Assembly (NCBI GenBank): GCA_029263715.1
Contig: JAJUFP010000012.1
Location: 1-41,656, forward strand
Reading direction: 5' to 3'
DNA length: 41,656 nt
From: Nitrososphaera sp.
GTDB lineage: Archaea > Thermoproteota > Nitrososphaeria > Nitrososphaerales > Nitrososphaeraceae
The notes under the pieces were generated by a model. That model was given only the letters and a program-made list of their open reading frames with translations, did not search any database and had not been told where the DNA came from. Of the stretch, positions 1 through 24,882 are shown piece by piece (position 1 is the stretch's first letter; every line of letters starts with the position of its first letter). Position numbers and translations under genes: made by a program.

Positions 1-2
1 AG

Positions 3-94
3 CGGGCCCGTCGGGATTCGAACCCGAGACAGCCGGATCTCTTTCTTTAGAGAAGTTAAAAGTCCGGTACTCTACCTGGCTGAGCTACGGGCCC
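3..94 (-). tRNA. tRNA-Lys(TTT) with an 18-nt intron
   Basis: Read on the minus strand, a 7-bp acceptor stem (GGGCCCG/CGGGCCC), a D arm, an anticodon stem CCGGA/TCCGG and a T arm all form. The loop CTTTTA-A gives anticodon TTT. An 18-nt intron lies at plus positions 39-56, at the canonical 37/38 site. It fits a bulge-helix-bulge: loop CTTT pairs with AAAG in the intron, the bulges are TA|A and AG|A, and the inner helix is CTT/AAG. The discriminator is G at position 3 and CCA is not encoded. Mature length is 74 nt. An AT-rich element around 119-130 is a plausible TATA box about 30 nt upstream. Confidence 0.93.
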
Positions 95-17393: not shown

Positions 17394-18764
17394 TCATGCA
17401 CCTATCCTGGACCTGACGATGCGGCTGTACTCGTCGACCTTGGAATCAAGCAGGCTCTTGTCCGTGGACTCGGCGTACATCCTTATCAGGGGCTCCGTGC
17501 CGCTGGGCCGGACCATCAGCCAGGTCTCCTCATCGATCCAGATCTTGGCGCCGTCCAAGTCCTCTATCCGTTTTGGGCTTCCATGCTCGGCGCAAGCCCT
17601 GATGGCCTTTTCCACGGCTTGCCGGGAGCTGCATTCAAACTTGGACTTGAACTGGTACGTCCTTGGAAGGCCGGATGCAAGCTGCGAGAACGATTCGGAT
17701 GCTGCAGCCAGCATGTCAAGGACCAGCGCGGTGGTCATGGCGCCGTCTCGCACCTGGTTAAGTCTGCCGTACATAAAGCCGCCGTTCTCTTCAAGCCCAA
17801 GAAGGCTTGAGCGCTGGACCATGGTCCTTGAGACCTCGACGCTTCCCACTTTTGTATGAAAGACCCTTCCTCCTGCCTTGCTGACGGCCATGTCCAGAAC
17901 CATCGACGAGTTTATCGGGCAGACCACCTCTGCGCCGGGATGCTTTTCCATTATATGCCGGGCTATCAGCGCACCAGTCTTGTCACCCCAGTACACCACG
18001 CCGTTGTTGTCGCAGAAAAGGCTCCTGTCGCCGTCGCCATCAAATGCTACGCCAAAGTCAGCCCTCCCGTTTCGAACTGTTTGTGTAAGCACCGACAGGT
18101 TGTCCGGCGTAGGCTCTGAGCCGCGGCCTGGAAAGTCGCCGTCCAGCTGGCCGTTGATGACGATGACCTTGCACCCAAGCTGCCGGGCAAGCAATGGAGC
18201 AACCGCAGCCTGCGCGCCGTTTCCCGTGTCCATCGCCACGGTAAAGCGTCGGGAGCGGATCCTGTCAGCGTCTACAAGCGAGAGCACGGCTTTCAGGTAC
18301 GAGCTGACAACGTTCTGATCCAGATAATCGCGGCCCGTGCCATCTGTACTGGCAAATTTTTTGGAATAGTAAATCTCCTCTACCTGTATTTCGTCTTCTC
18401 TTGAAATCTCGACGCCGTCTCCTGCGGCAGGCTTGATGCCGTTGTATTCCGGCGGATTGTGGGATGCAGTGATCATGATGCCGCCTTTGTACCCCAATCG
18501 CTTGGCCGCGTACTGCAGGCAGGGCGTTGGCAGAAGGCCGGCGTTTCCAACGTCCAGCCCTGCCGAGTTAAGCGTGGCCCTGACGATCTTAGACAGAGCA
18601 TCACTGGATTTTCGGGCGTCGTTGCCAACGACGATGGGCCCCTGGCCGTAGTAGGTGGCCAGTGCGTATGTGAGGTCGATAGCAAGTTCAGCCGTCAGCT
18701 GTTTACCATAAATGCCGCGGACCCCGTTGGTTCCAAACAGGCGCGGTCGGCTATCTGTTTGCAT
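17394..18764 (-). CDS. glmM: Phosphohexomutase (phosphoglucosamine/phosphomannomutase family)
   Basis: The 456-aa protein has the catalytic phosphoserine loop TASHNPPEYNG (S101), the Mg2+ loop DGDGDR (D242-R247), the sugar-binding loop EENGG near 325 and the phosphate-binding RPSGTEP near the C-terminus. It interconverts hexosamine or hexose 1- and 6-phosphates and feeds UDP-GlcNAc and other surface-sugar precursors. The sugar loop is EENGG, not the usual E-x-SGH, so the exact substrate is open. The ORF is open to 19043, but the upstream part lies antisense to the tRNA-Leu gene. The ATG at 18764 (start MQTDSRPRLFGTNGVRG) matches the family, and a TATA-like element lies about 28 nt upstream. 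Confidence 0.92.
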   Translation of the reverse strand: MQTDSRPRLFGTNGVRGIYGKQLTAELAIDLTYALATYYGQGPIVVGNDARKSSDALSKIVRATLNSAGLDVGNAGLLPTPCLQYAAKRLGYKGGIMITASHNPPEYNGIKPAAGDGVEISREDEIQVEEIYYSKKFASTDGTGRDYLDQNVVSSYLKAVLSLVDADRIRSRRFTVAMDTGNGAQAAVAPLLARQLGCKVIVINGQLDGDFPGRGSEPTPDNLSVLTQTVRNGRADFGVAFDGDGDRSLFCDNNGVVYWGDKTGALIARHIMEKHPGAEVVCPINSSMVLDMAVSKAGGRVFHTKVGSVEVSRTMVQRSSLLGLEENGGFMYGRLNQVRDGAMTTALVLDMLAAASESFSQLASGLPRTYQFKSKFECSSRQAVEKAIRACAEHGSPKRIEDLDGAKIWIDEETWLMVRPSGTEPLIRMYAESTDKSLLDSKVDEYSRIVRSRIGA

Positions 18765-18788: not shown

Positions 18789-18799
18789 AGATAAATTTG
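18789..18799. promoter_or_regulatory. TATA-like element shared by glmM and tRNA-Leu
   Basis: The sequence AGATAAATTTG lies between the glmM ATG (18764, minus) and the tRNA-Leu 5' end (18823, plus). It is about 28 nt from each and can be read as a TATA box on both strands. Confidence 0.45.
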
Positions 18800-18822: not shown

Positions 18823-18956
18823 GCGGGGGTTGCCAAGCCTGGCCAACGGCGCAGGTCTCTTTTACGAGTGCGAAGCTTAGAACGGGTCAGGCAGACAAGC
18901 TGGCTCCTACAACCCTGTTCCTTAGGGATTCGTGGGTTCAAATCCCACCCCCCGCA
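18823..18956 (+). tRNA. tRNA-Leu(TAG) with two introns
   Basis: Acceptor GCGGGGG/CCCCCGC, a long variable arm (TCC TTA GGGA) and T stem GTGGG/CCCAC identify a class II tRNA. Removing 18856-18874 (19 nt) and 18882-18911 (30 nt) yields an 85-nt tRNA with anticodon stem CAGGG/CCCTG and loop CTTAGAA, anticodon TAG. Intron 1 is at non-canonical position 30/31 and fits a perfect bulge-helix-bulge: CGCA pairs with TGCG, bulges GG|T and AA|G, inner helix CTC/GAG. Intron 2 is at canonical 37/38 and contains a 7-bp helix (GGGTCAG/CTGGCTC); its central helix (TAG/CTA) is relaxed, so its exact edges could shift by 1 nt. CCA is not encoded. Confidence 0.9.
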
Positions 18957-19094
18957 CCTTTTTGCTGATGGGCTTTGCAATCGGCTAATGATCCCGGTGA
19001 CGGTTGCAAAGACAAAACAGCAGTCATCTACAGACAAAAGCATTGGTAAAACTTTATTGCAAAGGCGTTATGCAAAACCTGCAAGGACTTATTG

Positions 19095-24664: not shown

Positions 24665-24790
24665 TCTAGCTTATCTGCGCATAAAAGGCATAAAGACCCT
24701 TTTGTTGTGGCAGGTTGTATGCTGGTCACGAAAGATGCCAGCCCTCTTGACACAATAGCACAAGTCTTTATGCAGAACCCAGAATTTAAG

Positions 24791-24882
24791 CGGGTCCGGT
24801 GGGATTCGGACCCACGACATTTTAACCCAGATTAACTGATTGGTTAAGAGCCAAACGCTCTACCTGGCTGAGCTACGGACCC
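24791..24882 (-). tRNA. tRNA-Lys(CTT) with a non-canonical intron at 42/43
   Basis: On the minus strand, acceptor GGGTCCG/CGGACCC, D stem GCTC/GAGC, T stem GTGGG/CCCAC and discriminator G are clear. The anticodon loop is CTCTTAA with anticodon CTT. The uninterrupted 3' side breaks after CCAA; removing plus positions 24822-24839 (18 nt) restores the stem TTTGG/CCAAA and a 74-nt tRNA. The intron fits a perfect bulge-helix-bulge: AACC pairs with GGTT, bulges AA|T and AA|A, inner helix CAG/CTG with loop TTAAT. A TTTAAATATC TATA box lies about 30 nt upstream (24907-24918). Confidence 0.93.

What the first reader, a model, noticed from the sequence alone, without database searches (positions are those of the whole stretch)
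18823..18956. tRNA-Leu(TAG) interrupted by two introns, one at position 30/31
Seen in sequence: a 134-nt gene folds to an 85-nt tRNA only after removing 19 nt at 30/31 and 30 nt at 37/38. The first intron makes a textbook bulge-helix-bulge (CGCA/TGCG central helix; GG|T and AA|G bulges; CTC/GAG inner helix). The second has a 7-bp internal helix but a relaxed central helix. Multiple and non-canonical tRNA introns are best known from Thermoproteales, and this requires a splicing endonuclease with broad specificity.
Basis: partly seen in the sequence, partly recalled or inferred. Interest (0 to 1): 0.75.

Follow-up and report, generated by a model that had tools for sequence, protein, structure and literature searches.

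The report
Leucine tRNA gene with two introns
A leucine tRNA gene of a soil ammonia-oxidising archaeon is interrupted by two short introns; close relatives share the arrangement and both kinds of intron are already known, so it is real and looks functional but is largely ordinary.

Summary
18823-18956 (+) is a class II tRNA-Leu(UAG) gene that yields an 85-nt tRNA only after removal of 19 nt at 30/31 and 30 nt in the anticodon loop. Folding of the one sequence does not prove it; comparison does. Of 36 Leu(TAG) genes parsed, 28 have both introns, 3 only the loop intron, 3 only the 30/31 intron, 2 neither; all 36 give 85 nt. Helices beside both splice bulges far exceed shuffles.

The second intron more likely lies at 38/39 (18883-18912) than 37/38; both give the same tRNA. 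Its central helix is the anticodon itself (UAG/CUA). The endonuclease has a catalytic and a structural subunit, as predicted.

No second Leu(TAG) copy was found by the patterns used in the 93.6%-complete genome. Multiple non-canonical introns in Thaumarchaeota, position 30/31 and the two-subunit enzyme there are in print: a new member of a known kind. Side observation: base 37 is A, not G, in every Leu(UAG) and Leu(CAG) gene read from genomes of this family.

The parts
18823..18956 (+). tRNA-Leu(UAG) precursor gene, positions 1-73 with two introns
   Evidence: read by hand; 36 of 36 parsed TAG genes give 85 nt
18823..18855 (+). exon 1, tRNA positions 1-30
   Evidence: homologues without intron 1 (L059, L062, L063) join CAGG directly to GCTTAGA
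18856..18874 (+). intron 1, 19 nt, position 30/31
   Evidence: central helix CGCA/TGCG, inner helix CTC/GAG; 31 of 36 parsed TAG genes carry intron 1
18875..18882 (+). exon 2, positions 31-38 (31-37 if the intron is at 37/38); anticodon UAG at 18878-18880
18883..18912 (+). intron 2, 30 nt, most likely position 38/39 (18882-18911 if 37/38)
   Evidence: base after A37 is A in 35 of 35 family rows, base before the 3' stem varies (26 A, 8 T, 1 C); reverse pattern in Leu(CAG)
18913..18956 (+). exon 3, positions 39-73 (stem CCCTG, variable arm, T arm, acceptor, discriminator A)
18850..18872 (+). BHB of intron 1: central helix 18850-18853/18869-18872, inner helix 18857-18859/18866-18868
18878..18909 (+). 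relaxed BHB of intron 2: anticodon 18878-18880 paired with 18907-18909, inner helix 18884-18890/18900-18906
   Evidence: bases checked; intron triplet CTA in 27 and CTG in 1 of 28 distinct introns; one exception, ATA, in L126 among 31 named loci
18790..18798 (+). TATA-like GATAAATTT, about 25-33 nt upstream
   Evidence: sequence; same or similar words upstream of several relatives' genes, by eye; not tested
18959..18963 (+). oligo-T run, possible terminator
   Evidence: sequence; not tested
17394..18764 (-). divergent phosphoglucomutase/phosphomannomutase gene used as synteny anchor
   Evidence: Pfam hits, translation; Leu gene upstream in 66 of 80 named loci

Best explanation
This is the genome's working tRNA-Leu(UAG) gene (reads CUA, and probably CUG by wobble). 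The transcript carries two bulge-helix-bulge type introns. A heteromeric (alpha-beta)2 splicing endonuclease cuts both bulges of each intron, and an RtcB-type ligase joins the exons to an 85-nt tRNA. Intron 1 sits at 30/31 and pairs exon bases 25-28 with its own 3' end. Intron 2 sits in the anticodon loop, most likely at 38/39, and pairs the anticodon UAG with CUA in the intron, so the pre-tRNA should not decode until it is cut. Shown: sequence, conservation, pairing across relatives, presence of the enzyme genes. Inferred: cutting, order of removal, ligation, enzyme assembly.
For: 28 of 36 parsed Leu(TAG) genes carry both introns and all 36 give 85 nt. Three relatives lack intron 1 exactly (L059, L062, L063). 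Helices beside the bulges of both introns beat 2000 shuffles. The gene is orthologous by position: of 80 named loci with the neighbouring PGM gene, 30 have the two-intron gene upstream, 1 the loop-intron gene and 31 an intron-free one. The host's Leu(CAG) has a 30/31 intron with a changed but matched central helix, CGTG/CACG. EndA catalytic subunit with Tyr119/His127/Lys158 and Lys37-Pro-Lys aligned to A. pernix Lys44-Pro-Arg; second subunit lacking the His; RtcB.
Against: No RNA data. The drawn BHB structure (without D arm, variable arm and anticodon stem) scores -37.6 against -52.9 kcal/mol for the best precursor fold, and the cloverleaf is not the best fold of the spliced tRNA either. Intron 2 lacks a full 4-bp central helix (3 pairs plus U33 opposite C); the outer helix of intron 1 is weak. 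The genome is 93.6% complete, so a second copy cannot be excluded.
Confidence: 0.94

Rival explanations
1. Same gene, but the second intron is at the canonical 37/38 (18882-18911).
For: 37/38 is the commonest archaeal site (PMC8450103, passages) and fits the sister Leu(CAG), where 29 of 32 family rows make all four canonical pairs.
Against: In 35 family Leu(TAG) rows the base that would open the intron is always A, while the base that would be exon position 38 varies (26 A, 8 T, 1 C; 31 A against 23 A and 8 T in the overlapping named set). No canonical pair of 32-35 forms in this gene (by hand). With 38/39 the 3' bulges of both introns follow one rule, A N^.
Confidence: 0.25
2. A pseudogene or decayed copy, another gene supplying Leu(UAG).
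For: ARAGORN and Rfam at gathering scores do not report it.
Against: No second Leu(TAG) in the genome by the patterns tried; exons conserved over the family; helices kept while intron sequence changes.
Confidence: 0.02
3. The introns do more than get removed, for example they hold back the tRNA or guide a modification.
For: The loop intron masks the anticodon with a nearly invariant CUA; intron-borne modification guides exist in other archaea (PMC11408192, passages).
Against: Length is free (18-47 nt for intron 2, 15-57 nt for intron 1 in the parsed set); intron 1 is absent in three relatives; pairing with the anticodon also follows simply from where a loop BHB must form; one named locus lacks the full CUA/CUG (L126).
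Confidence: 0.05

Closest known systems
Non-canonical and multiple BHB introns of archaeal tRNA genes (Thermoproteales, Thaumarchaeota)
   Same: Two introns in one gene, one at 30/31, a position already listed in PMC4090602 (passage); Thaumarchaeota with multiple non-canonical introns and a dedicated BHB model in tRNAscan-SE 2.0, PMC8450103 (passages).
   Different: Kept as a pair across one family of ammonia oxidisers; loop intron apparently one base off the canonical site.
Canonical archaeal anticodon-loop intron 37/38
   Same: Loop position, BHB-like, presumably removed by the same enzyme.
   Different: Central helix uses 34-36 rather than 32-35; comparative boundary 38/39.
(alpha-beta)2 splicing endonuclease of Aeropyrum pernix (PDB 3p1z, 3ajv)
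   Same: Catalytic subunit aligns over residues 3-181 (E 1.7e-48), with the catalytic residues and a loop lysine followed by Pro and a basic residue, as described in PMC12397907 (passages).
   Different: The structural subunit (204 aa) matches M. kandleri 5x89 and M. jannaschii 1a79 best and A. pernix catalytic chains only weakly.

Membership tests
BHB-type archaeal tRNA intron, relaxed forms included (intron 1) | 4-bp central helix between exon and intron 3' end | tested here: met
   CGCA/TGCG here; 25 of 28 distinct TAG intron 1 sequences have TGCG, 3 have GGCG with one mismatch
BHB-type archaeal tRNA intron, relaxed forms included (intron 1) | two 3-nt bulges and an intronic inner helix | tested here: met
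   GG^T, AA^G, CTC/GAG; inner helices beat shuffles, 3 of 28 with one pair only
strict hBHBh' motif (intron 1) | stable outer exon helix | tested here: not met
   only G24-C32 and G23-U33 by hand in the precursor; so filed as BHB-type, not as the full strict motif
strict hBHBh' motif (intron 2) | 4-bp central helix | tested here: not met
   3 pairs (UAG/CUA) plus U33 opposite C; U33 opposite G or A in 6 of 28 distinct introns; relaxed form only
BHB-type archaeal tRNA intron, relaxed forms included (intron 2) | inner helix beside the bulges; removal restores a 7-nt anticodon loop | tested here: met
   7-bp inner helix; CTTAGAA between CAGGG and CCCTG, mature 85 nt
BHB-type archaeal tRNA intron (both) | excised in the cell | not testable with these tools
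   needs RNA data
tRNA-Leu | class II tRNA with long variable arm, Leu anticodon, discriminator A | tested here: met
   same exons as the intron-free Leu(TAG) genes L069, L070 in layout
(alpha-beta)2 splicing endonuclease | separate catalytic and structural subunit genes | tested here: met
   two PF01974 genes; Tyr/His/Lys kept in one, His missing in the other
(alpha-beta)2 splicing endonuclease | heterotetramer that cuts these introns | not testable with these tools
   needs protein and RNA

The most novel reading that the evidence does not exclude
In Nitrososphaeraceae the loop intron of Leu(UAG) sits one base on, at 38/39, uses the anticodon itself as its splice helix, and its A37-A38 splice bulge has displaced the G37 that is normally methylated (m1G37) to hold the reading frame on CUN codons. 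CUA and CUG would then be read by Leu tRNAs without m1G37, a natural test of whether that modification is needed there.
Probability: 0.15. Interest if true: 0.5.

Novelty: new member of a known kind. Interest (0 to 1): 0.27.

Why it matters
It shows that a double-intron leucine tRNA is the usual state in a family of soil ammonia oxidisers, that a bacterial-mode and an Rfam scan miss it, and that intron boundaries can be placed by comparing sister isoacceptors. Three relatives that lack intron 1 exactly are natural controls for gain or loss. The A37 side observation offers a testable exception to the m1G37 rule for Leu(CUN) tRNAs.

Tried and rejected
Rejected: a Thermoproteales origin (titles are Nitrososphaera, Nitrososphaeraceae and other Thaumarchaeota); pseudogene; chance pairing; strict coupling of A37 to the loop intron, because Leu(CAG) has A37 without an intron in families f2, f6, f9 and f13 and two Leu(TAG) genes have an intron with G37 (G051, G063).

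Led nowhere: folding of the single sequence. Paper searches for prior reports of this gene: searches gave the general tRNA-intron papers that I then read in passages or left as listings; (tRNA intron + Nitrososphaera) gave one paper and four, none about this by title; on position 37 gave no paper that, by listing, deals with this family. A full tRNA inventory of the genome was only begun; L083-L100 were not read.

Dropped rows; of 47 sequences, 5 did not fit the parser (L065, L075, L076, L079, L080; L065 is by eye a Leu(TAG) with the loop intron and another intron elsewhere) and 6 were other anticodons; L056 was left out beforehand as the same gene as L073; 8 of 43 rows are outside the family; one family row (G011:C1:55701) was dropped as not tRNA-like; this pattern is loose, with chance matches also in its control columns; 14 of 80 loci had no Leu gene found upstream, 4 unparsed. 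The sets overlap in genomes and must not be added up.

Full report
What is there. The 134 bases at 18823-18956 (+) read as a class II leucine tRNA precursor. Removing 18856-18874 (19 nt, between positions 30 and 31) and 30 nt in the anticodon loop leaves an 85-nt tRNA with anticodon UAG. A TATA-like GATAAATTT lies about 25-33 nt upstream and an oligo-T run follows the gene (sequence; neither tested). tRNA position numbers here were assigned by hand.

Chance. Folding of the single sequence does not settle it: the precursor has z = -1.67 (14 of 200 shuffles fold as well), two inner pieces have z = +0.64 and +0.38, and the drawn BHB structure (no D arm, variable arm or anticodon stem) scores -37.6 against -52.9 kcal/mol for the best fold. 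Comparison settles it. A DNA search of 61 genomes (own plus 60 relatives; the match list was cut off) gave full-length homologues in many family genomes. I parsed 47 Leu sequences: 36 are Leu(TAG); 28 carry both introns, 3 (G013, G014, G015) only the loop intron, 3 (L061, L066, L071, other families) only the 30/31 intron, 2 (L069, L070, other families) neither; all 36 give 85 nt. In 28 distinct intron 1 sequences the helix directly beside the bulges sums to 147 bp against a shuffle mean of 18.4 and maximum of 39; in 28 distinct intron 2 sequences 134 against 20.1 and 40; 0 of 2000 shuffles reach either. 3 of 28 intron 1 sequences have only one pair there. The sequences are related, so the counts are not independent events.

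Distribution. In 161 genomes of the order the loop-intron pattern matched 43, including 35 of 37 of the window's family; of the two family misses, G028 has a longer loop intron (L057) and G024 is unresolved. The 30/31 pattern matched 34, of which 31 of 37 in the family; of the six family misses, three lack intron 1 (G013, G014, G015), one has a longer one (G023, L073), two (G024, G093) are unresolved. An intron-free loop matched 14 of 161, three of which have the 30/31 intron (G038, G046, G054). The remaining 104 genomes matched neither loop pattern; these patterns are tight, so nothing follows from that. Named genomes: of 80 loci holding the neighbouring phosphoglucomutase gene, 30 have a Leu(TAG) with both introns upstream, 1 (L106) with the loop intron only, 31 an intron-free one, 4 were unparsed and 14 had none found. 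Titles of the intron-bearing ones are mostly Nitrososphaera, Nitrososphaeraceae or Nitrososphaerales; intron-free ones include Nitrosopumilus, Nitrosotalea, Nitrosarchaeum and unnamed Thaumarchaeota, with an exception by title, L167, labelled Nitrososphaeraceae. In 12 of the 62 parsed loci the tRNA is more than 300 nt from the PGM match, otherwise close. So the gene sits in an orthologous place and differs by introns.

Sister isoacceptors. The host's own Leu(CAG) (L074) also has a 30/31 intron, with central helix CGTG/CACG instead of CGCA/TGCG, and so have Leu(GAG) or Leu(CAG) genes of other families (L064, L068, L072, L077). The exon half changes and the intron half follows in L074 and L072; L064 and L068 show one mismatch. 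Shared ancestry or intron transposition between paralogues, as proposed for Thermoproteales (PMC4090602, passages), could explain this; I did not test which.

Where the loop intron ends. In this gene an A repeats at both ends, so 37/38 and 38/39 are equivalent by sequence. In 35 family rows the base after A37 is always A, and the base before the CCCTG stem is A in 26, T in 8 and C in 1. In 32 family Leu(CAG) rows (31 genomes) it is the other way round: the base after A37 varies (15 T, 14 A, 2 G, 1 C) and the base before the stem is always A. The simple reading is 37/38 in Leu(CAG) and 38/39 in Leu(UAG). With 38/39 the 3' bulge obeys A N^, as in intron 1. A Fisher test on the Leu(TAG) counts gave p = 0.002, ignoring relatedness. 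The central helix is then UAG of the anticodon with CUA of the intron: 27 of 28 distinct introns CTA and 1 CTG; in the overlapping named set 28 CTA, 2 CTG and 1 ATA, which breaks one pair (L126).

Enzymes. The genome has two tRNA_int_endo genes. The 182-aa one aligns with A. pernix EndA over residues 3-181 (E 1.7e-48) and keeps Tyr119, His127 (the column altered in 3ajv) and Lys158, and Lys37-Pro-Lys aligned to Lys44-Pro-Arg of A. pernix (columns counted by hand), the loop linked to broad specificity (PMC12397907 and PMC6379350, passages). The 204-aa one lacks the His. RtcB is present. Thaumarchaeota are already said to have the alpha2beta2 type (PMC4090602, passage).

Position 37. All 31 loop-intron genes parsed and all 35 family rows have A37; the 14 intron-free-loop genes have G37, as do the 31 intron-free named ones. 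In one search, 4 genes of family f13 and G079 also have A37, G051 and G063 have G37 despite an intron, and G060 is ambiguous. For Leu(CAG), 32 of 32 family rows have A37, but so do intron-free genes of four other families. So A37 is a lineage trait, not strictly tied to the intron. m1G37 is described as conserved in Leu(UAG), (GAG) and (CAG) (PMC8384417, passages), but a survey of archaea says tRNAs for C-starting codons have unmodified A37 or mostly modified G37 (PMC7668247, passages), which lowers the surprise. A Trm5/TYW2-family gene is present.

Verdict. Position 30/31, multiple introns and Thaumarchaeota as hosts are in print (PMC4090602, PMC8450103, passages), so it is a new member of a known kind.

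Noticed in passing
window 2-94 (-): ARAGORN calls this tRNA-Stop(tta). Read by hand it is tRNA-Lys(TTT) with a canonical 37/38 intron (central helix CTTT/AAAG), so the anticodon is misassigned.
   Followed up: partly
window 24790-24882 (-): tRNA-Lys(CTT) with, by hand, an 18-nt intron outside the anticodon loop near 42/43 and a BHB with central helix AACC/GGTT.
   Followed up: partly
L074 (own genome C14, about 127767-127890): Leu(CAG) of the same genome also has two introns, at 30/31 and in the anticodon loop, with matched helices.
   Followed up: yes
L075 (own genome C3, near 176310-176430): Leu(TAA) is 120 nt and seems to carry two introns, one in or near the D arm; boundaries not worked out.
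   Followed up: no
L065 (G048): Leu(TAG) of another family has the loop intron, but its other intron seems to lie in the D arm instead of 30/31.
   Followed up: no
position 37 of tRNA-Leu(UAG) and Leu(CAG), family-wide: A37 where a G that becomes m1G is described as conserved.
   Followed up: partly
own genome, one search hits: Several further tRNA genes are longer than intron-free ones (ARAGORN labels: Ala, Asn, Arg, Cys, Pro, Ser; some labels probably wrong because of introns), so the genome looks rich in tRNA introns; not counted.
   Followed up: no
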